Positions 2,714 through 18,622 of a stretch of DNA of 19,546 nt are shown piece by piece. The notes beneath the pieces were generated by a model. The model did no database searches. It saw only the letters and a program-made list of their open reading frames with translations, and had not been told where the DNA came from. Source of the stretch: Planctomycetes bacterium UBA1135 (GTDB lineage Bacteria; Planctomycetota; UBA1135); the NCBI GenBank assembly GCA_002311925.1, contig DCAK01000021.1, positions 18,881 through 38,426 on the forward strand, written 5' to 3'. Position numbers and translations under genes: made by a program. Numbering within the stretch: the first letter of the stretch is position 1; each line of letters starts with the position of its first letter.

Positions 2714-2762
2714 GACGGTTCATGCTACAGGGTGATTGTTATCCTGGCTGACACATCCCGCA
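2714..2762. promoter_or_regulatory. Short divergent intergenic region
   Basis: This is the only non-coding DNA between the divergent FG-GAP and cysteine dioxygenase genes: 49 bases with the GTG start for the dioxygenase, 22 with the alternative TTG at 2736. Promoters for both directions must lie here or inside the flanking coding ends. I could not pick convincing -35/-10 boxes, so this is inferred from gene layout only. Confidence 0.3.
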
Positions 2763-3335
2763 GTGGCTTCCTCCCTCTTTGCCAATTCCTTCATCCGCAG
2801 CCTGGACGCGGCAGTCCAGGATGGGGACGTGGGTTCCCGTTGTTCCAAGGTGAAATCCGTTTTGAAGGATGCCATTGAGGGAAATCCTGGATTTCTCCAC
2901 CCCGAATTCTTGGAAACCTCGGAGGGTGGTTATTCCCGTCACCTTTTCCACAGGGACCCCGCCGGCCGGTATTCGGTGGTCATCATGGTCTGGGACAGGG
3001 GCCAGGGCACTCCCCTGCACGACCATTCAGGAATGTGGTGCGTGGAGGGCGTCTACCAAGGAAAAATCCAGGTTATTTCCTACGCGTGTGACGGAGAAAC
3101 GGGAGAAGATTCGGGCCTCTTCCGTTTTCACGAATCCGAGAAAGTTCTCGCCGGCGTCGGAGAAGCTGGCGCCCTCATTCCCCCCTACGACTATCACTCC
3201 ATCTCCAATCCGGACCGCTCTCCCGCCGTCACCATCCACGTTTACGGAGGGGAAATGGAGCGATGCAACATGTTCCTTCCTGAAGGGGAGGGCTGTTTCC
3301 GCCGCCAGGAGCAGGTTCTGGCCTACACCCCCTGA
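2763..3335 (+). CDS. Cysteine dioxygenase family protein (CDO type I cupin)
   Basis: A 190-residue cupin matching the cysteine dioxygenase family, which oxidises cysteine to cysteine sulfinate with a mononuclear iron. Numbered from this start, the iron ligands appear to be H86 and H88 (HDH motif) and H145 (in YDYHS). The second-shell pair H159 and Y161 (IHVYG) and the substrate-carboxylate Arg (R59, in GYSRH) are present. C93 lies five residues after H88, the place of the mammalian Cys that crosslinks to the active-site Tyr. GTG at 2763 gives the usual family length; a TTG at 2736 would add nine residues. Neither has a good ribosome binding site. The stop TGA overlaps the proposed CTG start of the next gene. 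Thiol specificity (cysteine or 3-mercaptopropionate) is not certain; the Arg favours cysteine. Confidence 0.85.
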   Translation: MASSLFANSFIRSLDAAVQDGDVGSRCSKVKSVLKDAIEGNPGFLHPEFLETSEGGYSRHLFHRDPAGRYSVVIMVWDRGQGTPLHDHSGMWCVEGVYQGKIQVISYACDGETGEDSGLFRFHESEKVLAGVGEAGALIPPYDYHSISNPDRSPAVTIHVYGGEMERCNMFLPEGEGCFRRQEQVLAYTP

Positions 3336-5680: not shown

Positions 5681-8600
5681 TTATTCCTTGGGGCCGGCCA
5701 ATCCGGTTCGGGCGTGGTCGTGGTGGATGGTCATCCACTTCCGCATGCTTTCGGGAAAACCCGTTCGGTAGCGGCCGTATCGCTGGGCCCAAAGGAGGAT
5801 TCCTGCCGGGTCCACGAAGGCGAGAGCCGGGGAGGTCCATCCCTGGACCGTCCATTCGCTTTCTTCCAGGATGATGTCCCGCTGGTGGAAGGCAACCTCG
5901 AATCCGCCAGGTGAACGTTTGGCGTAGTCGATATTGAGCAGGTCGGCGACGCCGGGGTCCATCGATTTCGGAAGGACCACGGTTACCCCTTGGCTGGGGT
6001 CCTCGGCCTCGAAATCGAGAAAGAATCTCTCCAGAACTTCCCGCACACGTTGGAGGCGATCCCCGGCATTCAAGCTCGCCAGCTTCTTCGAGGTTTCTTC
6101 GGGGAACCACAGCAGCAGGGTCCCGGATACGGACAAGGGCAGGCCGAGGACGGGTCTACGAACCAACTCTCTCCAACTGTCCTCCCCGGGGCGGGAGGGG
6201 TGAAGTCCTCCTCCGAGGGCTGGGCCGGCAGGGGACCAACGCAAGCGGTCGAGCCTCTGCACCACCGGGTTCCGGACCCGCATGGCGCCTTGGGAGGTGA
6301 AGAAGCCGATTTTCCCCTGGATTGGGCGGCCGTCCAGGGTGGAAACGACGGCAACCCGTTGCCCTTCCACGGTGACTTCCGCGGTCGGACCGTCCACCAG
6401 GATTTCCAAGGAAAAGGTCGGGTCGGCGTTCTTGAAAGCGACGGTTCCAGCCTGGCCGCCTCGGCGGACATAAAGGTCGGACAAGCTCCACGAGAGGCGG
6501 TCGGGGACGGCCGCCGAGGGCTTGACCCCGGCGGAATAAGCGGCGTCTCCAACCTGGAAGCCGAAGCGAATGTTGCGGTCGCGGCGGGTCCACCCAAGAG
6601 CGATTCCTCCTGAGACGAATGCGGTGGTCATCTCGATTTGGGCGGTCAGCTTCCACCGGCCGGGGTCCTGCCATTCTTCGGAGAGGGCGAAGGCGTCCCG
6701 GTAGTGGGATTTCCTGTCCATGGTGTCGGTTCCCTTTCTCGGCTCCTTGCGGCCGACATGCAGGTCGCCTTGGCGGTCGGTGTACCAGAGGCCGGGAACT
6801 CTGCGGTCTTCATGGCCCGTCAGGCCGTCTTCTCCCCAACCTCCTAGGCCCAGGGCCCTGGGCGGAGTGTTGAAGGGGTGGATTCCAAAATCTCCTCCTT
6901 CCAGGCGGGCTTTCACCCCCTCCAAGTTCATGCGTAGGAGGGGTAGCCCCAGGGTTGCGGCAAGCCTGTCGTGGTCGGCAGCCAACGCGCTCGCTGCCAT
7001 CTTGAGGCCTTGGGAGGCATAATTGCGGGCGGCCATGGCCAGACGCTCAAGGAAGCCTCGGGTGGCGGGGAGGCTGCTGAGGAAGGGGGCGGGTTCGGAG
7101 GCGGGAGGCCGGTGAGGGCCGTCGAGCCGTGGCCAAAATCTCACCACCCATGCGGCGTCCCTCGCCCCGAGTTTTTGGAGGATTTCGGCAAAATCCTCGA
7201 GAATGGCGTCGGAAGCTTCATCCACTCTCAGCGACCAGGTAAAGGCGTCCACAGCCTCCTTTCTCCGTCCCACTTCGAGCAAAATCTCTCCAGCGACCCT
7301 TGCCTGGTCCTGGCCGAACCAAGGTTCCGTCCGGCCCCGGAGCCACGACCAGGTGGGTTCATCCATGATCGTGGGGGATGGGTCTCCCCTCGGGGTCTTG
7401 GTGGTGTAACGAGCCGTCCAGGGGGCCTTGTTCCGCCAATGGAAACCTTGCAGGAATGCAGTGAAATCAGCGGCGAACTCCTCCATTCCCTCGGGACGCC
7501 CTTCTTTTCCATCCGCGAAAAAGGAGGCGAAGACTTGGACAGGATTCCCTCGCCGCCGCTCCTTGCCCCTCATGTATTTCTGGATACGCTCGGCGTAGAG
7601 GGGAACCAGTTTCTCCCCCTCCTCGGGTTCGTCGGGCCCGGCCCAGGTGTTCAGATAGACCCAGAGGGCGTAACCCGCAGTGTAATTGTCGCGATATTCC
7701 TCGGGTCCGGTTCCGACCAATTCCTCCAACTTTGCCTGGCTGCCGTAGCCCATGTTGAGGGCGCCCAGGAGGGTGCCGGGGCTGGCGTGGTTGGGCACGA
7801 ACTCAGTGTCGTAGATGCTGCCATAGGCTCCCCCAGTCCAGGTGGCCCGGCCCTCGGAAAGCCATCCGGGCAGACCTCCGAAGACGGCCCCGTCGAAGCG
7901 ATGCGTCAACTCGTGGGTGATGCCGCGGCCGAGGCCGGGGATGTTCCCGCAGGTGAACTTGAGAGTGGTGGTGTCGCCGCCCTGGAAACCACCGGCCCAC
8001 CAGAAGGGGGCTCCTTCCATTTCCAAACCATGGGATTCGGGGACGACCCGGAGGACGCCTGGTCGGCCGACGAAGGGATCCTGCTCGTACCAGCCGACTA
8101 GGCGGACATGATGATGTTCGACCGTGGTGGCGGAGCCGTGCAGGGTTCCCCAGCCGCAATTGGTTTCCACCCGGTACCAAGCCCTGGGGGAAAGAGACAC
8201 TCCCGGCTCACCGAACCCTCCATGGGCCTGGGTGAATTCTCTTTGCTGGATGAGATCCATTTCTTCCAGTTCTTCGATGGTCCAGACTCGGTTGTTGTCC
8301 ATGAGAAGGCGACGGGCTCGGCCGACGGCCCCTGCGGCGCTGCCCATATTGGTGGCCCAGCCGGGAGCCGGGGGCCCCTCCAGGTCGTCAAAACTGGCCT
8401 GCGCCGCCATTCCCCGGAGGCAGCGGGCCGCCCGGAGAGCCAACCTGGGCTTTCCCGAACTGAAGGCGTTCCGAATTACATCCTGGAGGCCTGTGTGCAC
8501 CCTCTTCATTCCCGCGTGGTCGGGAGCGAGGTTCGCATCAAATTCAGCGGCGGGGCCATTGAGGAGGAGGGGGGAGGGAGCCGCAAGGGTGCGGCCGAGG

Positions 8601-9025
8601 TCCTCGGCCCACTCGGCGACCAGCGAACCCCCAACTCGCCTTGTCTTGGTCCACTTGCCGTGAAACCTGGCCAATTCCCTGACGGCGGCGGCTCGGGCCT
8701 TGGCTAGGTCAACCGGAACCGAATCGTCCGGGGGAAGGCTTGCACGCACTTCTCTGGAGGGTTTGATGACTCCCCTTTGGTCGGCTGCATAGGCGGCCCA
8801 ATCCACGGCCCACATCACCCGCGCGTCGGGATCCTGGACTGCATTGGCGAGAAGAAGTTCCAGAACCGGGCCGGAATCCGGAACCAAGGAAAGGGCGTAA
8901 TCAAGGTGCCTGAAGGCCTCTTCGTGGTCACCCTTCTCCATGGCCGCGCGACCCGCCTCCACGGCCGGAACCCATGGATCCTGTTGAAGGGAGAGAGGGA
9001 CCGATAGCGCCAGGAAGAGAATCAT
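5681..9025 (-). CDS. Secreted multidomain HEXXH metallopeptidase-like protein (peptidase MA-like) with TPR, concanavalin-like and thioredoxin-like parts
   Basis: 1114 residues. Signal peptide at 1-14 (ends LSLQQ). A TPR-like helical pair lies about 20-60. The central domain holds HELTH (H371, E372, H375) followed by GLPGWLSEG with E391, the HEXXH plus downstream Glu layout of gluzincin/peptidase MA-like families, so zinc proteolysis is likely. Residues about 570-630 look TPR-like again. About 780-930 resembles a concanavalin/LamG-type beta sandwich. About 955-1100 resembles a thioredoxin/peroxiredoxin fold (LLLWFPEE, SPALAFVDPAGILLW) but has no cysteine, so redox activity is not expected. The ATG at 9025 overlaps the stop of the cytochrome-type gene as ATGA, implying translational coupling. 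The TAA at 5683-5681 directly abuts the opposing gene's TGA. Substrate is unknown. Confidence 0.85.
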   Translation of the reverse strand: MILFLALSVPLSLQQDPWVPAVEAGRAAMEKGDHEEAFRHLDYALSLVPDSGPVLELLLANAVQDPDARVMWAVDWAAYAADQRGVIKPSREVRASLPPDDSVPVDLAKARAAAVRELARFHGKWTKTRRVGGSLVAEWAEDLGRTLAAPSPLLLNGPAAEFDANLAPDHAGMKRVHTGLQDVIRNAFSSGKPRLALRAARCLRGMAAQASFDDLEGPPAPGWATNMGSAAGAVGRARRLLMDNNRVWTIEELEEMDLIQQREFTQAHGGFGEPGVSLSPRAWYRVETNCGWGTLHGSATTVEHHHVRLVGWYEQDPFVGRPGVLRVVPESHGLEMEGAPFWWAGGFQGGDTTTLKFTCGNIPGLGRGITHELTHRFDGAVFGGLPGWLSEGRATWTGGAYGSIYDTEFVPNHASPGTLLGALNMGYGSQAKLEELVGTGPEEYRDNYTAGYALWVYLNTWAGPDEPEEGEKLVPLYAERIQKYMRGKERRRGNPVQVFASFFADGKEGRPEGMEEFAADFTAFLQGFHWRNKAPWTARYTTKTPRGDPSPTIMDEPTWSWLRGRTEPWFGQDQARVAGEILLEVGRRKEAVDAFTWSLRVDEASDAILEDFAEILQKLGARDAAWVVRFWPRLDGPHRPPASEPAPFLSSLPATRGFLERLAMAARNYASQGLKMAASALAADHDRLAATLGLPLLRMNLEGVKARLEGGDFGIHPFNTPPRALGLGGWGEDGLTGHEDRRVPGLWYTDRQGDLHVGRKEPRKGTDTMDRKSHYRDAFALSEEWQDPGRWKLTAQIEMTTAFVSGGIALGWTRRDRNIRFGFQVGDAAYSAGVKPSAAVPDRLSWSLSDLYVRRGGQAGTVAFKNADPTFSLEILVDGPTAEVTVEGQRVAVVSTLDGRPIQGKIGFFTSQGAMRVRNPVVQRLDRLRWSPAGPALGGGLHPSRPGEDSWRELVRRPVLGLPLSVSGTLLLWFPEETSKKLASLNAGDRLQRVREVLERFFLDFEAEDPSQGVTVVLPKSMDPGVADLLNIDYAKRSPGGFEVAFHQRDIILEESEWTVQGWTSPALAFVDPAGILLWAQRYGRYRTGFPESMRKWMTIHHDHARTGLAGPKE

Positions 9026-11508
9026 CGGACAGCTTCCACCGTGGCCGGGAGAATTCTTTCCGGAGAAAGGGCCCAGCGGAATTTCACGTAGGTCAGGACA
9101 TCGGCCACTTCCTCGTCCGAGAGTCCCGCCACTCCCGGCATCACCAAGTTCCAGGACCGACCCGCAACCTGGATGGGGCCGTCCAGGCCGTTGGTCACAA
9201 TTCGGGCGAGTTCAGCAGCCGGCCTGTCCAACCATTCCGAACCTGCCAGCGGCGGGGCTAGGCCTTCCATGCCATCACCCATGGCTTGGTGGCAGTTGAG
9301 GCAGGTGCGGCGAAACACGCTTCGGCCCCGATTCTTGGCTGCGAGGAGTTGGGGGTCCTCCGGGGCTTCAGTCTCCGGGGTGGGAACCCATTTCAATTTC
9401 CCCGCCAGGATCTCACCCGGCGTTCGAAGAGAGGGGGCTTCGAGGTAAGCGAGCTTTCCCATCACCGGAGGTGCTGTGCCGATGAATGTTCTTCCTTTTG
9501 GAAGGCCAGCAATCAAGCCTGCGACCAGGTCTTCCTTCTGCCAAAGTGGGACGGATTCAGCGAACAGGAAATCGGTCAGGATGGCAAGGAGGTCCTCCTC
9601 CTCTCCCGTAGCGGCCACGCATTGTCCAAGTTCCCGGAAGAGGGGACGCCCACCGGGAGGCGGGGTTTGCCAATCGGGATGGGGGCCAATCGTCCCGAGA
9701 AGGGCGACTTCCAGACCTTGGAGACCCGAGACGGCCCCGGTTCGCAGGGGTGCGTCCGGGGCTCCCGATTTGAGCAGGGCAATCCAGATTTCCCTGGCTT
9801 TCTCGAAAGGGATGTAGGGAAGGCTCAGGGCCAACTGACGGCGGACCTCAATCGGGCCGATTTCCGCAATCCGATGCAGGACGGGAAGGAATTCTTTCGG
9901 AATGCCTGAAGCGAGAGTGGGCTCCAGGATGCGAATGGAGGCGGCTGCCACCGCGGAATCCGGGTCTTCCATGGCCTCAAGGAGAAGGGCAGGGTCTCTG
10001 CTTTCCAGGCCTTCCAAGGTCCAAAGGGCGTGGAGTCGGCCTCGGGCGGAACCTTCCCTCGCCATCTTCTCCAAACTCGGAATCACGGAGAAGTCTTGTC
10101 GGTCGACCAGTACCCGCTGGGCCGTATCCCGCCACCAACCCTCGGGATGAGCGAGGAGCCCGACAAGTTTCTCAGGAGCAGCATCGGACAGGCGAAGGGG
10201 GGCGGCCGGGGAAAAGTCCTCGGGGCTCACCCTCCAGATGCGGCCCAAGCCCAGGGGAGTGGCGAGTCCGCGGTCCTCCACCTGGTGGCGCAGGAAGGAG
10301 GTCATGAACATCCGGTGCTGAATGATTCCCCTGTAGAAGTCCACGACGAACAGGTTTCCGTCGGGCCCGTTGACCAGGTTGACGGGCCGAAAGCGTTCAT
10401 CCGTGGATGCCAGAAATTCTCCATCAGGAGTAGCGATTCGACCCCTGAGGAAACCGTTTTCGTTCTCCACGAGGCACCGCTGCACGAGATTCCCGGCAGT
10501 TTCGCATATGAAAGCATTGCCATGATAGGTTGACGGAAAGGTGGTCCCCCGGTAAATCACAGGACCACAGGCTGCCGTCCACCGGGACAAGCGGCCATCC
10601 TTGAGCAATCCTTCCTGGTAACCGCGGTTGACTCCGGGTGTTAGGTGAACGGGCCAGACCGGACCCTGCCTCAACACCGTGGAATTCACCCCCTTGGCCT
10701 TGCCCAGCCCCGGGTGCCGGACAGCGTAGTGGGAGGGAATGAGGTCGGCGTGAAGTGGGCTGCTGTTGTAGTTGAAGAATAAGCGCCCGACGTCGTCCTT
10801 TGAGATTCCCCATTGGCCACCCCCGCCTGACCTGGATTTTTCCCATCGCCCCGAACGGAATCGATAGCGACGGTTGTGACCGGCGAGGTGAATCCAGTTG
10901 TCCATTCCCCGGAGAAGACCGTTGGGCGAGTGCTCGGGGTTTGCAAGCCCTCCAAGGCCGGTATCGATGCGAGTGACTTCGTCCGCTTCGCCATCCCCGT
11001 CAAAATCCTGGCAGAAAAGGAGGTCGGGGGGTGCAAGGACGAGAACCCCGCCGGGCGCAAAACCCAGGGCCCGGGGAAGGACAAGGCGGTGAAGGAAAAC
11101 GGTCTTCTTGTCCATTCGGCCGTCGCCGTCTTCATCTTCCAAAACGACGATGGAGCCGTTGTCGACTCCTTCCCCCTTGCCATCGGGGTTGGGCATGTAA
11201 CCCTTCATCTCGACCACCCAAAGGCGCCCATCCTCGTCGAACTTCGCCACCACCGGGTCGTTGATGAGAGGTTCGGAGGCTACCAGCTCAATTTTGAATC
11301 CTGGCTCCAGGCGGAAAGTGTCCAGTTCCTCTTCGGGGCTCAGAGCCGGAGCGGGGGGAAGCTGAAGTTCCGGCGGAAGGGGAGTCTGGATTTCATCCTT
11401 CCTGTCGCCCGCTTGACCCTCGGCACTCCCAGCAAAGGCGAGCAAGGCGACGGCAAGAAGGATGAGCCGGAAAACGGGCCCGAGGCCCCAGGGGGAAGCC
11501 AAATCCAT
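9022..11508 (-). CDS. PVC-type beta-propeller/HEAT protein with C-terminal CxxCH cytochrome c domain
   Basis: 828 residues from ATG 11508, which begins a clear signal peptide (hydrophobic 13-28, cleavage near SAEGQ). An upstream ATG at 11562 would bury that signal behind 18 residues and overlap the divergent gene, so it was not used. The N-terminal half is a sugar/sorbosone dehydrogenase-like propeller starting with FRLEPGFKIELVASEP and carrying calcium-like DGDG loops. The middle has HEAT-like helical repeats. The C-terminal domain has a haem site C736-x-x-C739-H740 and a likely axial Met, M790, in LVMPGVAGLSDEE. This architecture is hugely expanded in planctomycetes and verrucomicrobia and is thought to be a periplasmic electron-transferring dehydrogenase; the substrate is usually unknown. 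It is coupled by ATGA to the metallopeptidase-like gene downstream. Confidence 0.92.
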   Translation of the reverse strand: MDLASPWGLGPVFRLILLAVALLAFAGSAEGQAGDRKDEIQTPLPPELQLPPAPALSPEEELDTFRLEPGFKIELVASEPLINDPVVAKFDEDGRLWVVEMKGYMPNPDGKGEGVDNGSIVVLEDEDGDGRMDKKTVFLHRLVLPRALGFAPGGVLVLAPPDLLFCQDFDGDGEADEVTRIDTGLGGLANPEHSPNGLLRGMDNWIHLAGHNRRYRFRSGRWEKSRSGGGGQWGISKDDVGRLFFNYNSSPLHADLIPSHYAVRHPGLGKAKGVNSTVLRQGPVWPVHLTPGVNRGYQEGLLKDGRLSRWTAACGPVIYRGTTFPSTYHGNAFICETAGNLVQRCLVENENGFLRGRIATPDGEFLASTDERFRPVNLVNGPDGNLFVVDFYRGIIQHRMFMTSFLRHQVEDRGLATPLGLGRIWRVSPEDFSPAAPLRLSDAAPEKLVGLLAHPEGWWRDTAQRVLVDRQDFSVIPSLEKMAREGSARGRLHALWTLEGLESRDPALLLEAMEDPDSAVAAASIRILEPTLASGIPKEFLPVLHRIAEIGPIEVRRQLALSLPYIPFEKAREIWIALLKSGAPDAPLRTGAVSGLQGLEVALLGTIGPHPDWQTPPPGGRPLFRELGQCVAATGEEEDLLAILTDFLFAESVPLWQKEDLVAGLIAGLPKGRTFIGTAPPVMGKLAYLEAPSLRTPGEILAGKLKWVPTPETEAPEDPQLLAAKNRGRSVFRRTCLNCHQAMGDGMEGLAPPLAGSEWLDRPAAELARIVTNGLDGPIQVAGRSWNLVMPGVAGLSDEEVADVLTYVKFRWALSPERILPATVEAVR

Positions 11509-11547
11509 GGTCGGGCAGGATAGCCCGCCGGGTAGGATGACTTTCTC
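11509..11547. promoter_or_regulatory. Divergent intergenic region with a small inverted repeat
   Basis: Only 39 bases separate the start of the cytochrome-type gene (minus) from the start of the DUF1080 gene (plus), the head of the sialic acid operon. It contains the inverted repeat CGGGC-N6-GCCCG at 11512-11527, which could be an operator, and AGGA at 11534-11537, a plausible ribosome binding site ten bases before ATG 11548. No convincing promoter boxes were found. The repeat is short and GC-rich, so chance is a real possibility. Confidence 0.3.
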
Positions 11548-12159
11548 ATGCGAATTCACCATTCACTCGGACTGATGGTGGCGCTTTCAATCGGTTGTGT
11601 GCCTTCCCAATCTGAGTCCATCTCTTGGATAGGGCCCGATTTTTCGGCCTGGAAAATTGTGGGTGGAAAGGCGGATTTTCGTTTCGAGAAAGGTGTCCTT
11701 TCAGGGGCCGGGGCGACTGGGGGGAATGCTTTCCTGGTGAGTCGTAAAAGCTTCACGGATTTCGAATTGAAATGCCAGGTGCGGATTCAACCCGGAGGGA
11801 ATTCGGGAATTCAAATTCGCAGCCATATCGGGGAAAACGGAAAAGTTGCCGGCTACCAAATTGAAATCGACCCAAGCGAGAGGGCATGGTCGGGGGGACT
11901 TTTTGATGAAGGGCGGGAGGGGTGGATTGTCTCCCTCGAAGGCAATGAAGAGGCTCGAAAGGCTTTCAAGGTGGGGGAGTGGAATCTCTATCGCATTGAG
12001 TGTCGCGGGTCTCGAATCCGAACTTGGGTGAACGGGATTTCATGCGTGGATTGGAATGAAGCCGGAGACTTATCCGGATTCATTGCATTTCAGGTTCATG
12101 GGGGTGGCAAGACCCAGGTGGATTGGAAGGAAATCGACTTCAAGGAATTCTTCGGATGA
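11548..12159 (+). CDS. DUF1080 / 3-keto-disaccharide hydrolase-domain lipoprotein
   Basis: 203 residues. A short N-terminal hydrophobic stretch ends in LSIGC with C17, a near-fit to a lipobox, so it is probably a lipoprotein. The rest is one jelly-roll domain of the DUF1080 (PF06439) type: the FSAWKIVGGKADFRFEKGVL opening, the GNSGIQIRS strand, and a closing VDWKEIDFKEF strand. The family was renamed for 3-keto-glucoside hydrolases, but many planctomycete members have no tested activity and may simply bind glycans. It is the first gene of the plus-strand operon; its stop overlaps the nagB start (ATGA). Hand counts of several lines give about 50-60% GC here against about 67% in a sampled line of the symporter gene. 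Function within the sialic acid operon is inferred from position only. Confidence 0.85.
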   Translation: MRIHHSLGLMVALSIGCVPSQSESISWIGPDFSAWKIVGGKADFRFEKGVLSGAGATGGNAFLVSRKSFTDFELKCQVRIQPGGNSGIQIRSHIGENGKVAGYQIEIDPSERAWSGGLFDEGREGWIVSLEGNEEARKAFKVGEWNLYRIECRGSRIRTWVNGISCVDWNEAGDLSGFIAFQVHGGGKTQVDWKEIDFKEFFG

Positions 12160-12911
12160 CGCGGGCGCTGGAGGTCCATCCGGGGACGGATGCAGTCGCG
12201 GATGCCGCCGCCGAGCTTGTGACGGACAGAATTCAAAAGGCGGCAAGCCAGGAGTCGCCCTTCGTTCTTGGATTGGCCACCGGCTCCACCATGAAGTCCA
12301 TTTTCTCCAGATTGGTGGACCGGCATCAAGGGGGCGGCCTTTCCTTCGCCGGGGTCGAGATTTTTCATCTCGACGAATATTGGCCCCCCCGGGCCGATGA
12401 CCCTGCCGGATTTGCTGCTTCCTTGGACGCACTCCTGGTTGGCCAAATTGACCTGGCTCCCGGGGCCTTTCATCCCTTTCCGGCAGGGGTCGAGGAGGAT
12501 GAAACCGCCAACGCATGTGCTGCCTACCGCGCATCCATCGCCTCCCGTGGGGGGGTAGACCTGCAATTGGTGGGTATCGGAACGAACGGCCACCTGGCCT
12601 TCAACGAACCCGGCTCGGGACGGGATTCCCGCGCCCGGAAGGTGGAACTGAATCCCGAGACTCTGGCCAGGATGCCGGAGGGTGTGGACTATCACCAAGC
12701 CCTGACTCTCGGTATCGCCGACATCCTGGATTCCAAGGCAATCCTTTTCGTGGCGACCGGGGGCGAGAAAGCGGAGGCCGTCCGCCGCACTCTTGAGGAA
12801 GCCCCCTCTGCTGATTGCCCGGCCTCCTTTCTCCAGGACCACCCGTCCACCACCTGGCTTCTGGACGCCGCGGCGGCCTCTCTTCTCCAAAGCGGAGAAT
12901 CCCAGGATTGA
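12156..12911 (+). CDS. nagB: Glucosamine-6-phosphate deaminase
   Basis: 251 residues, matching the usual NagB length (about 240-270). It converts glucosamine-6-phosphate to fructose-6-phosphate and ammonia, the last step of amino-sugar breakdown, in the cytoplasm. Visible motifs: the phosphate loop LATGSTMKS (about 40-48), FHLDEYW with D73 and E74, and GIGTNGHLAFNEPGS with N144, H146 and E151. The place of the E. coli catalytic Asp141 is Asn here, as in the Gram-positive type of NagB, so this does not suggest inactivity. The C-terminal ALTLGIADIL and ATGGEKAEAVR motifs are also present. ATG 12156 overlaps the preceding stop as ATGA; a longer reading from 12123 would run into the previous gene. 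Its substrate would arrive from GlcNAc via a kinase and NagA that are not in the window. Confidence 0.93.
   Translation: MTRALEVHPGTDAVADAAAELVTDRIQKAASQESPFVLGLATGSTMKSIFSRLVDRHQGGGLSFAGVEIFHLDEYWPPRADDPAGFAASLDALLVGQIDLAPGAFHPFPAGVEEDETANACAAYRASIASRGGVDLQLVGIGTNGHLAFNEPGSGRDSRARKVELNPETLARMPEGVDYHQALTLGIADILDSKAILFVATGGEKAEAVRRTLEEAPSADCPASFLQDHPSTTWLLDAAAASLLQSGESQD
12894..12897 (+). promoter_or_regulatory. Ribosome binding site supporting the TTG start of nanA
   Basis: GGAG inside the 3' end of nagB, ten bases before TTG 12908. It decides the nanA start, because the only longer candidate starts lie deep in nagB and would add residues foreign to the family. Confidence 0.55.
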
Positions 12912-13828
12912 GCCCTAATTTTCCCGGCCTCACGGCGGCGGTTCATACGCCTTTTGATTCCTCCGGTGCTTTGAAGGTTCAGACGGTCCCGGCCCAGGCG
13001 AGTTTCCTGGCGGGTCGGGGAATACTGGGAGTTTTCGTTGGTGGCACCACCGGAGAGTGGCCATCCCTCACCGTCACCGAGAGAATGCATTTGGCCGATG
13101 CCTGGTCCACAGCGGGCTCTCAGAACGGATTGAAGGTCATCATCCATGCCGGGCATTCCGCGTTGGAGGATGCCCGCGCCCTGGCGGGGCATGCCGCCAG
13201 TTTGGGGGTGGATGCCATTTCCACCCTCTCCCCTTCCTTTCTCAAGCCTTCGAGCCTCGGTGCTTTGGTGGATTGGTGCGCCCAAGTTGCCGAACCCGCC
13301 GCCTCTCTTCCCTTTTTCTACTACCACATTCCGGTTCTCACCGGCCTCTCCTTCCCCATGGCGGACTTCCTTCCCCTTGCATCGGAGGAGATTCCCAATT
13401 TTGCCGGGATCAAGTTCACATCCACGGATTTCAACGATTTAGAGGCCTGCGTCAATTTGGCAATGGAGGATGTCGAAATCCTCTTCGGGGTGGATGAAGA
13501 AATCCTTCGAGGATTACAGGCCGGATGTCGAGGAGCCGTGGGCAGTTCCTACAACTTCGCCTCTCCCCTTCACCTGGCCTTGATCGAGGCCCATGAATCG
13601 GGCGCTTTGGATGAGGCGGGTCGACTTCAGAAGCTTGGAGTTCAGGCCATCGAAGCTCTCCAGAAAGCGGGCTATCTCCCGGCCGCGAAACAACTCATGG
13701 GAAGGATGGGAGTCGAGATTGGCAGCGCCCGTCCCCCGCTTGTCCCGGTTTCCGAGGCGGCAATGGACGAGGCGGAAGAAATCCTTCGCGGACTTGGGCA
13801 TCCCGATTGGGGAGGGGGGACTTCATGA
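12908..13828 (+). CDS. nanA: N-acetylneuraminate lyase (DHDPS/NAL aldolase family)
   Basis: 306 residues from a TTG start that overlaps the nagB stop as TTGA and has GGAG ten bases upstream. The enzyme cleaves N-acetylneuraminate to N-acetylmannosamine and pyruvate through a Schiff base. Visible motifs: the pyruvate-binding loop GGTTGEWPSL (45-54), FYYHIPVLTG with the catalytic Tyr at 139, and FAGIKFTSTDF with the Schiff-base Lys at 169. The YYHIP version of the Tyr motif resembles the animal-type lyases more than E. coli NanA (YNIP). Neighbours fit: nagB before, a mutarotase-transporter, 2-epimerase and sialidase-like gene after. Dihydrodipicolinate synthase is the main alternative, but the motif variants and operon context argue for sialic acid. 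Confidence 0.93.
   Translation: MSPNFPGLTAAVHTPFDSSGALKVQTVPAQASFLAGRGILGVFVGGTTGEWPSLTVTERMHLADAWSTAGSQNGLKVIIHAGHSALEDARALAGHAASLGVDAISTLSPSFLKPSSLGALVDWCAQVAEPAASLPFFYYHIPVLTGLSFPMADFLPLASEEIPNFAGIKFTSTDFNDLEACVNLAMEDVEILFGVDEEILRGLQAGCRGAVGSSYNFASPLHLALIEAHESGALDEAGRLQKLGVQAIEALQKAGYLPAAKQLMGRMGVEIGSARPPLVPVSEAAMDEAEEILRGLGHPDWGGGTS
13811..13815 (+). promoter_or_regulatory. Ribosome binding site for the mutarotase-symporter gene
   Basis: GGAGG in the last codons of nanA, nine bases before ATG 13825. It supports ATG 13825 over the upstream candidate at 13807, as does the signal peptide that begins exactly at 13825. Confidence 0.55.
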
Positions 13829-16308
13829 GCCTTCTCCTTGTTCTCGCATTTCTTCAACAAGGTGAACTCAAGTGGTCCAGCTTGCCCCCTCTCGCCGACG
13901 GCCGAGGTTTCGGGGGAATGTTCGCGGGAGTGGTTGGTCCTGAGGAAACTCTCCTTGCCGCCGGCGGCGCCGATTTTCCCAATGCCCCCCCATGGGAGGG
14001 TGGCGAAAAGGTGTGGACCGACAAGATTTGGGCCTTGGACGGTCCTGCAGGGAATTGGGAAGCGGTCGGGCAACTCCCCGCTCCCCTGGCCTACGGGAGC
14101 TCCATTCCATGGCGGAACGGTTTTCTGGTGGTCGGGGGACGAGATTCGGGAGGAAGCGTTGCGTCCGTTTTCAGCCTCTCCTGGGACGGAGAAAACATCT
14201 CCGTCGAGGAATTCCCTCCGCTTCCCCAGCGTTCCTCCTTTCATTGCGCCGGAAAAATCGGCAACTCCCTCTTCCTCCTCCCCGGCCAGTCGGATGCGGA
14301 CGGACGCGACCTGACCCCGGAATTCTGGTCCCTCGACCTCGACCAACCCGAACTAGGCTGGCAAGTGGAAGCTCCCTGCCCGGGAGGCGCCCGCATCAAG
14401 GCGGCCGCCACCGTGCAGACCCTCGGGGATGGAAGAGAGGGCTTTTTCGTTTTCGGCGGGGAACACCCCGACGAGGGGATTCTTTCGGATGCGTGGGCTT
14501 TCCTGCCGGGAGAGGGGTGGCGCGCGCTCGCGGACCTTCCCGCCCCCAAGGCGGCGGCCGGGATTTACCCGGCGGGGCAGTCCCACATCCTTCTTTTTTC
14601 AGGGGATGACGGGTCGTTGCGGGGAACCCCCCAGGACCAACACCCCGGCTTCTCCAGTGAAGTTCTCACCTACCACACCATCACCGACACCTGGACCCGG
14701 GTCGGCAGCATGCCGGAGGGCGTGGTCACGGTGCCCATGGTTTCTTGGAGGGGATCTTTTGTCCTGATTTCCGGGGAAACCCGGCCCGGGGTGCGGACCC
14801 CTTCCGTCCTCGCCGCGAATCTTCCCAAGGGGGGCGGTGGCCTCCAATCCCTCGACCTCCTGATTCTTGCCCTCTACCTTCTTCTCCTGGTCGGAATGGG
14901 GGTCCATTTCGCGCGCCGAACCCGAGCCAGCCAGGACTTTTTCCTGGCCGGCCGCAGGATTCCAGGCTGGGCCGCCGGGCTTTCCATTTTCGGAACCCAG
15001 TTGTCAGCCATTACTTTCCTGGCCACGCCTGCCCTGGCCTATGCCACCGACCTCCGTTATGTCCCCACCTGGATTTCCATCCTCCTCGTGGCTCCCCTGG
15101 TGGTACACGGTTTCCTTCCCGTCTTTCGCCGCCTTTCCCTCGCCACCGCCTACGAGTACCTGGAGCGTCGATTTTCCCTGGCCGTGAGAATGTTCGGCAG
15201 CTGCGCATTTCTCATCGCCCAGCTGGCCCGGATGGGAATCGTGGTCTTCCTTCCCGCTCTCGCCCTGGCCACCGTCACGGGCGTCGATATCCAAATCTGC
15301 ATCCTGTCCACGGGAATTCTCGCCACCCTGTACACCACCCTGGGCGGAATGGAGGCCGTGGTCTGGACCGATGTCCTCCAAGTATTTGTTCTGGTGGGGG
15401 GGGTCCTGGTGGCCCTGGGAATCGCCATCGCCGGGGCCGGCGGGGCTGGCCCCCTTTGGGAACTGGCCCAAAGAGATGCAAAATTTCTCCTGTGGGACGG
15501 AGGCTTCGCCTGGACCGAGACGGCCAGCTGGTCGTTGCTGCTGGGATCTATCTTTCTGATGATTCCCCCCTACACCACCGACCAGGCGGTCATCCAGAGA
15601 TACATGAGCACCCCGGATGAGAAGGCCGCCGCCCGAGGGGTCTGGTTGAACGGCTGGCTTTCCATTCCCGCTGGAATCCTGTTCCCCATCCTCGGGGCCT
15701 GCCTCTATGCCTTCTACAAGGCCCAACCTGAGAAAATCCTGACCGGGATGCCCAACGACGGCATCTTCCCCCTTTTCATCGGCGCCGAAATGCCGGTTGG
15801 CCTGACCGGGCTCGTCATCGCCGGCCTTTTCGCCGCCACCATGTCTTCACTGGATTCCTCCATGCACAGCATCTCGACCGTGGTGGTGAACGACTTCCAT
15901 GGCCGATTCGGGAAAGCTCGCGAGGATTCCGAGATTCTGAAACTCGCCCGAAGGTGGACCGTGGTCGCCGGCCTGTTCGGAACCGCATGCGCCCTTCTCC
16001 TGTCCACTTGGGATGTGCGCTCCCTCTTCCTGTTCTTCTTGAAATCTCTCGGCCTGCTTTCCTCCGGCCTCGCCGGAGTCTTCCTCCTGGGAATCTTCAC
16101 TCGCCGGGCCCATTCCACCGGAGTTCTCGTGGGGGCATTCGTGTCCGCGCTCGTCCTGGGATGGGCCTCCATGGCCACCGACCTCCACACCTTCTGGTAC
16201 GCCTTCGTGGGAATGGGAACCTGCGTCGGCGTCGGGTGGGTTGCGAGCCTCGTCCTTCCAAGCGCAGCCCCCTCCTCCTCGCGGGAAGGAAAATCCTCGA
16301 CCCCATGA
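13825..16308 (+). CDS. Fusion of periplasmic sialic acid mutarotase (Kelch propeller) and Na+/solute symporter
   Basis: 827 residues. A short signal peptide (MSLLLVLAFLQQG) is followed by a six-bladed Kelch-type propeller at about 15-335 of the cyclically permuted mutarotase / NanM type: GGADFPNAPPWEGGEKVW (47-64) and SGETRPGVRTP (316-326) are family hallmarks. From 343 to about 812 it is a sodium:solute symporter with 13 or so hydrophobic segments, the ASQDFFLAGR and GGMEAVVWTDVLQ (507-519) signatures, and the MSSLDSSMHSISTV helix (673-686) that normally holds sodium-site residues. The symporter fold has its N-terminus outside, so the propeller would sit in the periplasm. Expected role: convert freed alpha-sialic acid to the transported anomer and import it with sodium. 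ATG 13825 overlaps the nanA stop (ATGA). Confidence 0.9.
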   Translation: MSLLLVLAFLQQGELKWSSLPPLADGRGFGGMFAGVVGPEETLLAAGGADFPNAPPWEGGEKVWTDKIWALDGPAGNWEAVGQLPAPLAYGSSIPWRNGFLVVGGRDSGGSVASVFSLSWDGENISVEEFPPLPQRSSFHCAGKIGNSLFLLPGQSDADGRDLTPEFWSLDLDQPELGWQVEAPCPGGARIKAAATVQTLGDGREGFFVFGGEHPDEGILSDAWAFLPGEGWRALADLPAPKAAAGIYPAGQSHILLFSGDDGSLRGTPQDQHPGFSSEVLTYHTITDTWTRVGSMPEGVVTVPMVSWRGSFVLISGETRPGVRTPSVLAANLPKGGGGLQSLDLLILALYLLLLVGMGVHFARRTRASQDFFLAGRRIPGWAAGLSIFGTQLSAITFLATPALAYATDLRYVPTWISILLVAPLVVHGFLPVFRRLSLATAYEYLERRFSLAVRMFGSCAFLIAQLARMGIVVFLPALALATVTGVDIQICILSTGILATLYTTLGGMEAVVWTDVLQVFVLVGGVLVALGIAIAGAGGAGPLWELAQRDAKFLLWDGGFAWTETASWSLLLGSIFLMIPPYTTDQAVIQRYMSTPDEKAAARGVWLNGWLSIPAGILFPILGACLYAFYKAQPEKILTGMPNDGIFPLFIGAEMPVGLTGLVIAGLFAATMSSLDSSMHSISTVVVNDFHGRFGKAREDSEILKLARRWTVVAGLFGTACALLLSTWDVRSLFLFFLKSLGLLSSGLAGVFLLGIFTRRAHSTGVLVGAFVSALVLGWASMATDLHTFWYAFVGMGTCVGVGWVASLVLPSAAPSSSREGKSSTP

Positions 16309-17480
16309 CATCCTTCGGCGCTCTCAATGGACGGCTCCTGGTCGAGGAAACTCTTCCCTTCTGGCTCAACCATGGTCTCGATGGGGAACATGGCGGGTTT
16401 TTCACCGGTTTGGGTCGGGATGGAAGCTTGGTGGACACCGACAAGGCGGTTTGGATGCAGGGTCGCGCCGCCTGGCTGTTCGGCCGCATGGCCCGCACCG
16501 AGGAACCACGGAAGGAGTGGCTGGAGGCGGCCCGGTCCTGTTGCGGTTTCCTGGCGGACCACGCCTTCGATGACCGGGGTCGACTGGCCTTCCTGTTGAC
16601 GCGGGAGGGAAGGATTCTCAGACGCCGTCGCTACGCATGGTCCGAGGCCTTTGCGGCGATGGGTTTCGGGGAATTGGCAGCCAACGAGGGCGATGAGGGC
16701 CTGCGCCAGCGGGCCTTCCAATTGGCCGACGCCTTCCTTGCAAACGAGGGAGATTCCGGGCGTCATCCCCCCAAGTGGGAGCCCGACGCCCGGCCCACCC
16801 GCGCTCTGGCCAAGCCCCTGATCGCCCTCGGCATGAGCCAGGCCCTCCGGGATTCTTGCGGATGGGAGGCGGGGGAGAAAGTGGCTGACCTGGCTCTTTC
16901 GGAAATGAAATCCTTCTTCGTCCGGCCCGACCTTGAGGCCGTCCTGGAAATCACCTCCCCGGATGGGGCCTTGGTTCATTCCGACGAGGGCCGCACTCTG
17001 CAACCAGGTCATGCCCTCGAAGGGGCCTGGTTCGTTTTGGAGGAAGCCCGTCGGCGAAGGGACGCGCAGGGCGACCCGGATTCAAGCCTTCAGACCATGG
17101 GCCTGGAAATGGCGGAATGGTCCTGGAAACGGGGCTGGGACCCTGAATCGGGTGGGATTTTCCATTCAGTTTCGCTCGACGGGGCGCCCATTCAAGAGGT
17201 TCACCAGGACATGAAATTCTGGTGGCCCCAGTGCGAGGCGATTCTTGCGGCGCTTCATGCCTGGGTCGCCACGGGCGATTCGAAGTGGGAAAAGAGGTAT
17301 GCCCAGGCGGGCGCATGGTTCGATTCCCATCACCGAGACCCGGAACACGGGGAATGCTTCGGGTGGCTTCATCGGGACGGTAGCCTTGCCCTCAGCCTCA
17401 AGGGGGGGATTTGGAAGGGTCCCTTCCACTACCCCCGCATGCAGCTCCTGGTGGGGCAGCTCGACCCCTGCAACCCATGA
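16305..17480 (+). CDS. N-acylglucosamine 2-epimerase (AGE family)
   Basis: 391 residues, the usual length for this (alpha/alpha)6-barrel family. It interconverts N-acetylmannosamine and N-acetylglucosamine without phosphorylation. Visible motifs: GEHGGFFTGLGRDG near the N-terminus, KAVWMQGRAAWLF, the KFWWPQCEA helix, EHGECFGWLHRDGS (347-360), and the C-terminal KGGIWKGPFHYPRMQ (366-380) with the expected catalytic His at 375. ATG 16305 overlaps the symporter stop as ATGA; the open frame reaches further upstream, but that is a shadow inside the symporter. It follows NanA in the pathway: ManNAc from the lyase would become GlcNAc. Cellobiose 2-epimerase is a related alternative, made unlikely by context. 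Confidence 0.9.
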   Translation: MTSFGALNGRLLVEETLPFWLNHGLDGEHGGFFTGLGRDGSLVDTDKAVWMQGRAAWLFGRMARTEEPRKEWLEAARSCCGFLADHAFDDRGRLAFLLTREGRILRRRRYAWSEAFAAMGFGELAANEGDEGLRQRAFQLADAFLANEGDSGRHPPKWEPDARPTRALAKPLIALGMSQALRDSCGWEAGEKVADLALSEMKSFFVRPDLEAVLEITSPDGALVHSDEGRTLQPGHALEGAWFVLEEARRRRDAQGDPDSSLQTMGLEMAEWSWKRGWDPESGGIFHSVSLDGAPIQEVHQDMKFWWPQCEAILAALHAWVATGDSKWEKRYAQAGAWFDSHHRDPEHGECFGWLHRDGSLALSLKGGIWKGPFHYPRMQLLVGQLDPCNP

Positions 17481-18622
17481 CGCTCACTCTCCTTCTCGCC
17501 CTGACCCTGCCCGCCCAGGAACCCGGGCCAGCGGGTTTTTCGATTCCCACCATCGACCTCGACCAGGAGGCTTCCATGCAAACGGTCGTGGACCGGGAGA
17601 AGGGCCAGTACCTGGGACATGTCACCACGGCCATGCTCGAGGACGGGAAGACTATTTTCGCCGTCTACCCCAAGGGCCATGGCAAGGGCGCCATCGTGAT
17701 GAAGCGAAGCGGGGACGGCGGCAGGACCTGGTCGGACCGCTTGCCCACCCCCGAGTCCTGGGCCACCTCCACCGAGGTCCCCACCCTCTACCGAACGGTG
17801 GACCGCGATGGGAAAAGACGCTTCATCATGTTTTCAGGGCTGAGGTCCATTCGCCTCGCTTCTTCCGAGGATGACGGGGTGACCTGGTCCGAATTGGAGT
17901 CCATAGGGGACTACGGGGGAATTGTTTCCTGCGCCGACATTGAACCCACCGCCGACGGCAGGCATTTCGCCCTCTTTCACGACGATGGGCGGTTCATGCC
18001 TGCGCAGTACCGACCCTCCGACGGCCATCCCTTTCATGTCTACCAAATCTGGTCCGAGGACGGGGGCCTGACCTGGGGGAAGCCGACGAGGGTGGCCTCG
18101 CATCCCAAGGCCCACCTTTGCGAGCCGGGCATCGTGCGCTCTCCGGACGGCATGAAGCTTGCGGTCCTGTTTCGCGAAAACAGTCGGACATTCAACGGCT
18201 TCGTGATGTTTTCCGAGGACGAAGGGGTCACATGGTCGAAACCCCGCCAACTGCCAGCCGCCTTGACAGGCGACCGCCATACGGCTCGCTACGCCCCCGA
18301 CGGTCGGCTCTTCATCAGCTTCCGCGACACGGCGCGCAAATCCGAAACCCAGGGAGATTGGGTCGGCTGGGTCGGGACCTTCGAGGACATCGAAAGGGGC
18401 CGCGAAGGTCAGTACCGGGTGCGTCTCAAGGACAACCTGCATCGCTGGGATTGCGCCTACCCAGGGGTCGAAATTCTCCCCGATGGGACCTTCGTCTGCA
18501 CCACCTACGGGCATTGGACGCAGGGGGAATCTCCCTGGATTCTTTCGGTCCGCTTCAAGTTGGACGACCTGGATTCTCGATTGGCAGGCGCTGGTGGGAG
18601 GCGTTCCCCTCTTTCCGAGTGA
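17477..18622 (+). CDS. Secreted sialidase-like protein with four Asp boxes (BNR repeats)
   Basis: 381 residues with a signal peptide (MTLTLLLALTLPAQ). Four complete SxDxGxTW Asp boxes at residues 78-85, 130-137, 193-200 and 246-253 mark a six-bladed sialidase-fold propeller. The canonical FRIP motif of GH33 enzymes is absent; the equivalent strand reads GHVTTAMLEDGKTIF, followed by the unusual YPKGHGKGAIVMKRS. Candidate carboxylate-binding arginines include R233 (LFREN) and R283 (ISFRDTARK). This may be an atypical sialidase family rather than GH33 (GH181-like is a possibility I cannot test here). Exo-sialidase activity rests mainly on operon context. ATG 17477 overlaps the epimerase stop (ATGA). 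Product would feed the neighbouring mutarotase-symporter. Confidence 0.85.
   Translation: MTLTLLLALTLPAQEPGPAGFSIPTIDLDQEASMQTVVDREKGQYLGHVTTAMLEDGKTIFAVYPKGHGKGAIVMKRSGDGGRTWSDRLPTPESWATSTEVPTLYRTVDRDGKRRFIMFSGLRSIRLASSEDDGVTWSELESIGDYGGIVSCADIEPTADGRHFALFHDDGRFMPAQYRPSDGHPFHVYQIWSEDGGLTWGKPTRVASHPKAHLCEPGIVRSPDGMKLAVLFRENSRTFNGFVMFSEDEGVTWSKPRQLPAALTGDRHTARYAPDGRLFISFRDTARKSETQGDWVGWVGTFEDIERGREGQYRVRLKDNLHRWDCAYPGVEILPDGTFVCTTYGHWTQGESPWILSVRFKLDDLDSRLAGAGGRRSPLSE

What the first reader, a model, noticed from the sequence alone, without database searches (positions are those of the whole stretch)
13825..16308. Mutarotase fused to a sodium symporter: anomer conversion built into the transporter
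A signal peptide, a NanM-like Kelch propeller and a complete sodium:solute symporter are one continuous frame with no stop and no internal start near the joint (about residue 335-343). Symporters of this family have an external N-terminus, so the propeller would sit at the periplasmic mouth and could pass the right anomer straight to the carrier. Similar fusions may be known in related bacteria, but the direct-handover idea appears worth testing.
Basis: partly seen in the sequence, partly recalled or inferred. Interest (0 to 1): 0.7.

Follow-up and report, generated by a model that had tools for sequence, protein, structure and literature searches.

The report
Sugar-flipping enzyme fused to sialic-acid transporter
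This gene makes one protein in which an enzyme that flips sialic acid into its importable form sits outside the cell membrane as a cap on the sodium-driven pump that imports it; the fusion is common and has been reported before, but how the cap is attached, and signs that it outlasts its own enzyme activity, look new and testable.

Summary
In detail: 13825-16308 is one 827-aa frame with a short signal-like segment, a six-bladed NanM-type propeller and a complete SiaT-type sodium symporter, inside a tightly overlapping sialate-type operon. The fusion is ordinary: one ORF spans the joint at all 80 loci kept from a genome scan, and a 2017 genome paper already names it.

The interpretation needs correction. 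The propeller is cyclically permuted relative to NanM and probably docked rigidly in the periplasm (AlphaFold2 pTM 0.93 and 0.90). But the chain leaves it on the face opposite the Glu318/Arg324 loop, about seven residues before the symporter, so mouth-to-mouth handover is unlikely.

Three unexpected results. (1) Fused propellers share a patch on the linker face that stand-alone permuted propellers mostly lack (219 of 238 against 7 of 104). (2) Fused propellers without the catalytic pair mostly keep the patch motif. (3) In the symporter tree, stand-alone SiaT and a signal-peptide-only group lie inside the fused clade, though the AU test does not exclude SiaT outside (p 0.088).

Best reading: an anchored mutarotase cap acting by proximity, perhaps with a second, non-catalytic role.

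The parts
13825..16308 (+). Whole fused gene, 827 aa: signal-like segment, permuted NanM propeller, SSS symporter
13825..13860 (+). Short signal-peptide-like segment MSLLLVLAFLQQ (residues 1-12); a G-rich Shine-Dalgarno-like stretch lies just upstream of ATG 13825
13870..14820 (+). Six-bladed propeller (residues 16-332), cyclically permuted relative to E. coli NanM; N-terminal strand 16-20 closes blade 6
14416..14418 (+). Q198, fused-specific patch, near the linker-side face
14575..14598 (+). Residues 251-258 (GQSHILLF), a-b loop and strand b of blade 5, fused-specific patch (251-254 and 258)
14668..14691 (+). Residues 282-289 (TYHTITDT), end of strand c and c-d loop of blade 5, fused-specific patch (282, 284-289)
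14773..14799 (+). GETRPGVRT (317-325): E318 and R324 align with residues 209 and 215 of the YjhT chain 2uvk; b-c loop of blade 6
14821..14847 (+). Linker (333-341) from the end of strand c of blade 6 to TM0
14848..16263 (+). [not shown]
15004..15015 (+). S394 to T397, equivalents of SiaT S60 and T63 (carboxylate binding)
15229..15231 (+). R469, equivalent of SiaT R135 (salt bridge to the sialate carboxylate)
15370..15372 (+). D516, equivalent of SiaT D182 (Na3 site)
11548..12159 (+). 3-keto-disaccharide hydrolase (DUF1080) family gene, 4-base overlap with nagB
12156..12911 (+). NagB-type glucosamine-6-phosphate deaminase (ATG 12156)
12908..13828 (+). NanA-like N-acetylneuraminate lyase, probable TTG start 12908, TTGA overlap
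16305..17480 (+). AGE-type N-acylglucosamine 2-epimerase, ATGA overlap with the fusion gene
17477..18622 (+). BNR-repeat sialidase-like gene with a signal-like N-terminus, ATGA overlap with the AGE gene

Best explanation
[quoted passage not shown] A sialidase releases alpha-sialic acid; the cap turns alpha into beta at the membrane surface; the symporter imports the beta form; the NanA-like lyase and the AGE epimerase degrade it inside. The propeller is held by a short linker and probably by a fused-specific patch on blades 4-5, on the face toward the transporter; its active-site loop opens on the other face. So it most likely helps by raising the beta anomer locally, not by mouth-to-mouth handover. 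Shown by computation: fusion, permutation, residues, operon, patch. Inferred: activity, orientation on the symporter, substrate flow.
For: Both domains above Pfam cut-offs; permutation against 2uvk; of 77 relatives, E318 kept in 74 and R324 in 73, and the SiaT equivalents S60 in 77, T63 in 74, R135 in 77, D182 in 77. AlphaFold2 pTM 0.93 (108 sequences) and 0.90 for a relative 40% identical to the window protein (73 sequences): two domains of about 330 and 485 residues with free orientation should score far lower (inference). R324 to the TM0-TM1 loop is exactly 48 residues in 72 of 78 rows; the most constant propeller span of that length reaches 76%. Patch motif 219 of 238 fused against 7 of 104 stand-alone. 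SiaT holds beta-Neu5Ac. With the starts chosen here, all five junctions of the six-gene operon overlap by 4 bases.
Against: No coordinates or PAE were available, so the docking geometry is deduced from strand order. Coevolution did not exceed its control. SiaT's Gln82, whose change to Asp abolished transport, is Trp416 here, and Thr58 is Gln392. NanA-like, AGE and TIGR03548 scores are below NCBIfam cut-offs. Only 33 of 76 loci (18 of 42 with 4 kb on both sides) have a NanA homologue in the fetched flanks, so other sugar acids may be carried elsewhere in the family. Linker length is less constant in rows found through the symporter alone: 17 of 26 exact, 25 of 26 within 2.
Confidence: 0.62

Rival explanations
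1. Permanent cap with a non-catalytic role: the propeller mainly stabilises or gates the symporter, or keeps other ligands out, through its linker-side patch; mutarotase activity is a function that can be lost. Compatible with the best explanation.
For: Fused propellers without the E/R pair mostly keep the patch motif: 5 of 6 in the 238-row set and 5 of 5 in the symporter-only set of 26 by a loose pattern, 5 of 6 and 4 of 5 by the strict one (rows printed); the distant L103, L123 and L159 fit the loose pattern by eye. Stand-alone propellers show the opposite: 6 of 104 by the loose pattern, 7 of 104 by the strict one. On the 58 fused rows of the quick tree, 9 lack the pair and need 8 changes.
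Against: No patch partner on the symporter was found; coevolution inconclusive. Most fused propellers keep the E/R pair (232 of 238; 21 of 26). SiaT transports without a propeller. The loose pattern was written after the rows had been seen. Four of the E/R-less panel rows (L045, L053, L061, L073) come from a scan that used YHTITDTW as one of its six patterns, and L143 and L146 are from genomes of one genus.
Confidence: 0.3
2. Funnel handover: the substrate enters the propeller from the outer face, is converted, and passes along the propeller's axis to the symporter's outer vestibule.
For: E318/R324 sit in a loop on the outer face, while Q198 (strand a, inner) and 251-254 (a-b loop, inner), conserved mainly in fused proteins, lie toward the opposite end. 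The putative catalytic site of NanM is described at one end of a central cavity (PMC10017367 passage).
Against: Whether the axis is open or lies over the vestibule is unknown here.
Confidence: 0.12
3. Mouth-to-mouth handover: the active site opens directly onto the transport path.
For: One chain, periplasmic N-terminus, nearly constant linker.
Against: The strand order puts the active-site loop and the linker on opposite faces, and only about seven residues separate the last strand from the symporter's N-terminal stretch.
Confidence: 0.07
4. Passive tether: fusion only keeps enzyme and carrier in equal amounts and retains the enzyme at the membrane; there is no defined docking.
For: Free NanM serves Neu5Ac uptake in E. 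coli (PMC10017367 and PMC8141875 passages); free permuted propellers exist.
Against: pTM 0.93 and 0.90, near-constant linker, fused-specific patch.
Confidence: 0.2

Closest known systems
[quoted passage not shown]
   Same: Same fusion, predicted inner-membrane protein, same catabolic setting (N-acetylneuraminate lyase, N-acyl-D-glucosamine 2-epimerase).
   Different: Given there by annotation; the passages read say nothing of permutation, docking, catalytic loss or history. Different phylum and gene order. Its sequence was not compared here.
SiaT of Proteus mirabilis (5nv9/5nva)
   Different: No propeller; the Thr58, Phe78, Gln82 and Phe243 positions differ. Staphylococcus aureus SiaT has Tyr and Asn at 78 and 82 (PMC6039549 passages), as do 17 of 77 relatives; the window has Tyr and Trp.
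E. coli NanM/YjhT (2uvk)
   Same: Six-bladed Kelch mutarotase; Glu209 and Arg215 of the chain aligned with E318 and R324.
   Different: Free soluble periplasmic protein, reported as a homodimer (PMC10017367 passage); blade order not permuted; not fused.
TIGR03548 cyclically permuted mutarotase family
   Same: Same permuted order; free relatives end 7 to 34, mostly 9 to 12, residues after the motif, where the fused chain runs on to TM0.
   Different: Score 100.7 against a cut-off of 243.2; fused members carry the linker-side patch.

Membership tests
NanM mutarotase (PF24996) | Pfam NANM above gathering score | tested here: met
   98.8 bits, cut-off 45
NanM mutarotase (PF24996) | Glu and Arg of the GExxPGxR[TS] loop (catalytic role recalled from Severi 2008, paper not held) | tested here: met
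   E318 and R324 align with residues 209 and 215 of 2uvk; kept in 74 and 73 of 77 relatives
NanM mutarotase (PF24996) | Accelerates alpha/beta equilibration of Neu5Ac | not testable with these tools
   Needs an NMR or coupled assay
TIGR03548 permuted mutarotase subfamily | NCBIfam score above curated cut-off | tested here: not met
   100.7 bits, cut-off 243.2
TIGR03548 permuted mutarotase subfamily | Cyclically permuted order relative to YjhT | tested here: met
   Query 13-114 matches chain 227-333; 276-330 matches 166-221 (the second piece is weak by itself, 9.8 bits)
SSS symporter, SiaT type | PF00474 and TIGR00813 above cut-off | tested here: met
   146.7 over 22.8; 223.8 over 184
SSS symporter, SiaT type | Carboxylate ligands Ser60, Thr63, Arg135 and Na-site Asp182, Ser342, Ser343 | tested here: met
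   S394, T397, R469, D516, S674, S675 in the window
SSS symporter, SiaT type | Gln82 (Gln82Asp abolishes transport in SiaT) | tested here: not met
   Trp416 here; Gln in 7 of 77 relatives, Asn in 33; S. aureus SiaT also has Asn there
SSS symporter, SiaT type | Na+-dependent sialate transport | not testable with these tools
   Needs a proteoliposome or nanT-minus growth assay
Mutarotase-symporter fusion | One frame with both domains, seen in relatives | tested here: met
Mutarotase-symporter fusion | Defined docking of the two domains | tested here: inconclusive
   pTM 0.93 and 0.90, but no coordinates; coevolution no better than control

The most novel reading that the evidence does not exclude
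The propeller is an ancient, permanent periplasmic cap of a whole symporter clade, docked through a conserved patch and acting on the transporter itself; its mutarotase activity is one use of it and has been lost several times with the cap kept. The well-studied free SiaT symporters (Proteus, with Plesiomonas and lactobacillus relatives) are descendants of capped transporters that shed the cap.
Probability: 0.3. Interest if true: 0.75.

Novelty: new member of a known kind. Interest (0 to 1): 0.52.

Why it matters
An enzyme fixed to the mouth of its own carrier is a clean system for asking whether proximity helps transport. The linker-side patch and its persistence without the catalytic pair give a concrete test for a second, non-catalytic role. 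If SiaT lost a cap, the structural model for sodium-driven sialate import is a reduced form of a larger machine.

Tried and rejected
Misassembly or chance fusion: rejected. Coevolution of the propeller with extracellular against cytoplasmic parts of the symporter: 73 of 52592 pairs above z 4 against 27 of 25536, maxima 6.15 and 6.17; inconclusive, effective depth 154, and with the two wrong rows named next. Two wrong rows (TonB receptors of L088) were in the fused set; one search removed them and its counts are used, but the loop averages still include them. Symporter-side docking residues: columns conserved in fused rows but lost in both free SiaT and signal-peptide-only rows were four, all inside helices, so no docking site was found. 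The TM9-TM10 loop had the largest gain of conservation against 21 unfused symporters, too few to use.

Result against the history proposed: a first symporter tree (72 rows, quick) held all 51 rows labelled fused as one clade with SH-aLRT 90, with the one SiaT row and L100 outside; more SiaT and signal-peptide-only rows moved both inside. AU tests reject all unfused rows outside (p 0.0004) and the signal-peptide-only group outside (p 0.046), but not SiaT outside (p 0.088); the groups were named after a tree had been seen, which weakens them. In one search two rows without the E/R pair (L053, L061) were labelled as having it, giving 6 changes; corrected labels give 8. The propeller tree needs 11 changes between fused and stand-alone rows, some of which may be genes cut at contig ends. 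The fold search lists only best matches, so the absence of 2uvk among the rows shown means nothing.

Ascertainment: the 77-row panel came from a scan that used YHTITDTW as one of six patterns. Fairer comparisons are protein-database fused rows (strict motif 136 of 150) against stand-alone rows (7 of 104), both found by shared words, and rows found with the symporter part alone (strict motif 15 of 26, Q198 24 of 26). The 104 stand-alone rows were kept because they carry the catalytic motif (104 of 110), so their 104 of 104 is by construction.
Full report

NOT CHANCE AND NOT NEW. The genome scan found 298 relatives in 315 stretches and kept 80; at all 80 one ORF crosses the joint. Their titles name Planctomycetota, Verrucomicrobia, Acidobacteriota, Bacteroidota families, Armatimonadota, Hydrogenedentota, KSB1, Sumerlaeota and others. 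All 120 listed of 2693 protein hits, the window's own among them, have both domains. [quoted passage not shown] Of ten full-text searches this is the only report of the fusion that I found; I opened passages of some of the listed papers, not all, and subscription journals are not covered.

THE PROPELLER IS PERMUTED. Against E. coli YjhT (2uvk), query 13-114 matches chain 227-333 and query 276-330 matches chain 166-221 (the second match is weak by itself). YjhT residues 209 (Glu) and 215 (Arg), whose catalytic role I recall from Severi 2008 (not held), align with E318 and R324. Stand-alone permuted propellers mostly end 9 to 12 residues after this motif, where the fused chain runs into TM0. Of 82 ORFs taken from the 80 loci, five that lack the N-terminal part were dropped; in the remaining 77, E318 is kept in 74 and R324 in 73.

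TOPOLOGY AND GEOMETRY. Signal-like N-termini occur in 77 of 77 relatives; two tandem copies at L061 have lipobox-like N-termini. Basic residues in the 8 positions after TM0 exceed those in the 12 before it in 48 of 78 rows and equal them in 20, a modest signal. SiaT has its N-terminus in the periplasm (PMC5931594 passage). The AlphaFold2 model has pTM 0.93, mean pLDDT 94.2 (108 sequences); a Lutibacter relative 40% identical to the window protein gave pTM 0.90, pLDDT 92.4 (73 sequences). With two domains of this size such values need a confident relative placement (inference; no PAE was given). By established propeller topology, loops b-c and d-a lie on one face and a-b and c-d on the other; strands were assigned from the DSSP list. 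E318 and R324 are in the b-c loop of blade 6. The chain leaves at the end of strand c of blade 6, hence on the opposite face, and about seven residues later (LPKGGGG) reaches the stretch aligned with SiaT's own N-terminus (Phe340 column). The active-site loop therefore cannot simply face the symporter. The span from R324 to the TM0-TM1 loop is 48 residues in 72 of 78 rows; the most constant propeller span of that length reaches 76%. In 26 rows found through the symporter alone, the linker is exact in 17 and within two residues in 25.

A PATCH THAT MARKS FUSION. Comparing 238 fused with 104 stand-alone permuted propellers, 13 columns are more conserved in fused by over 1.2 bits, and all 13 are Q198, 251-254, 258, 282 and 284-289. 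These lie in blade 5 and near the end of strand a of blade 4, mostly at loops a-b and c-d, the linker-side face. Twenty random splits of the fused set gave at most 0.91. The strict motif ([IVL]T at 286-287 and T289) is in 219 of 238 fused and 7 of 104 stand-alone. Catalytic-face loops show the opposite: on average they are better conserved in stand-alone propellers (which still held two wrong rows). With protein-database rows only, 18 columns pass: the 13 above, L256, and W168, M296, V303 and M305, so the result is slightly less clean there. An ascertainment bias is stated under Tried and rejected.

PATCH WITHOUT CATALYSIS. Six of the 238 fused rows lack the E/R pair. The strict motif is kept in five (L088 has YNAITNVW); a loose pattern Y[HN]x[ILV]T[DNEKR]xW, written after seeing the rows, is also kept in five (P0007 has FHSITETW). 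In the 26 rows found with the symporter alone, five lack the pair; all five fit the loose pattern (20 of 26 overall) and four the strict one (15 of 26 overall). One of the five (L139) has Gly instead of Q198, and L143 and L146 come from genomes of one genus. L128, one of the five, is the nearest to the window on the quick symporter tree after L001. A second Pseudoalteromonas copy (L159) and the distant L103 and L123 (Sphingopyxis, beside a CoA ester lyase gene) also lack the pair and keep Y[HN]x[IV]TxxW. The loose pattern is in 6 of 104 stand-alone propellers. On 58 fused rows of the quick tree, nine lack the pair and need eight changes. So patch and catalysis come apart in both directions. 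The patch is best read as attachment or work on the transporter; this is inference.

HISTORY. In a careful tree of 52 symporter domains the fused rows need three changes, and none of 200 bootstrap trees has them as one clade; with the nine other unfused rows as outgroup, one gain and two losses is the simplest history. The clade holding all fused rows has 99/99 support. A signal-peptide-only group (L100, L145, L147) lies inside with 100/99, and free SiaT (Proteus, Plesiomonas, two lactobacilli) inside with 100/93. AU tests: all unfused outside p 0.0004; signal-peptide-only outside p 0.046; SiaT outside p 0.088. An earlier, smaller quick tree had the fused rows as one clade (SH-aLRT 90) with its one SiaT row and L100 outside. 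I regard cap loss as likely for the signal-peptide-only group and plausible for SiaT.

SUBSTRATE. SiaT's carboxylate ligands Ser60, Thr63 and Arg135 are S394, T397 and R469; the Na-site residues Asp182, Ser342 and Ser343 are kept, while Ser345 is Asp677. Thr58, Phe78, Gln82 and Phe243 are Gln, Tyr, Trp and Ser. Seventeen of 77 relatives have Tyr78 with Asn82, as in S. aureus SiaT, which has higher affinity for Neu5Gc (PMC6039549, passages read). SiaT was solved with the beta anomer, and E. coli NanT is said to carry it too (PMC8141875 passage). NanA homologues lie within the fetched flanks at 33 of 76 loci; a sialate acetylesterase-like gene lies beside one locus without NanA (L044), and other kinds of genes beside others. 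The family may not be purely sialate.

MECHANISM. Likely order: sialidase, alpha-sialate, cap, beta-sialate, symporter, lyase, epimerase. The cap most likely acts by proximity. Two open additions are transfer along the propeller's axis and a non-catalytic effect on the transporter; the second is favoured by the patch results. All steps of flow and activity are inferred.

Noticed in passing
L100:2884-4761 (-), L145, L147: Symporters 47-48% identical to the window's with a signal-peptide-like N-terminus and a short linker but no propeller, all from one genome family (f68): a likely relic of propeller loss.
   Followed up: partly
L088:7851-10436 and L159: Two fused copies on one Pseudoalteromonas replicon, both without the catalytic Glu/Arg loop; a gene annotated as kelch repeat-containing protein lies near the first (L088:17211-18364).
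   Followed up: partly
L123:949-3336: Sphingopyxis symporter with a propeller-like N-terminal half that Pfam does not recognise, beside CoA ester lyase and carboxylesterase genes: perhaps a different substrate.
   Followed up: partly
L119 (two copies) and G127:C1:1086408: Three fused genes within about 27 kb of one complete genome; L061 also has two in tandem, one without the catalytic pair.
   Followed up: no
L063 model residues 302-340: The Lutibacter relative has a predicted helical pair inserted in blade 5, absent from the window.
   Followed up: no
window 9022-11562 (-): DUF7133 protein with a C-terminal cytochrome c domain and a weak HEAT-repeat match.
   Followed up: no
window 5681-9025 (-): 1114-aa protein with a signal-like N-terminus and no Pfam match at E 0.001.
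   Followed up: no
window 2736-3335 (+): Cysteine dioxygenase type I family match (33.9 bits, cut-off 23).
   Followed up: no
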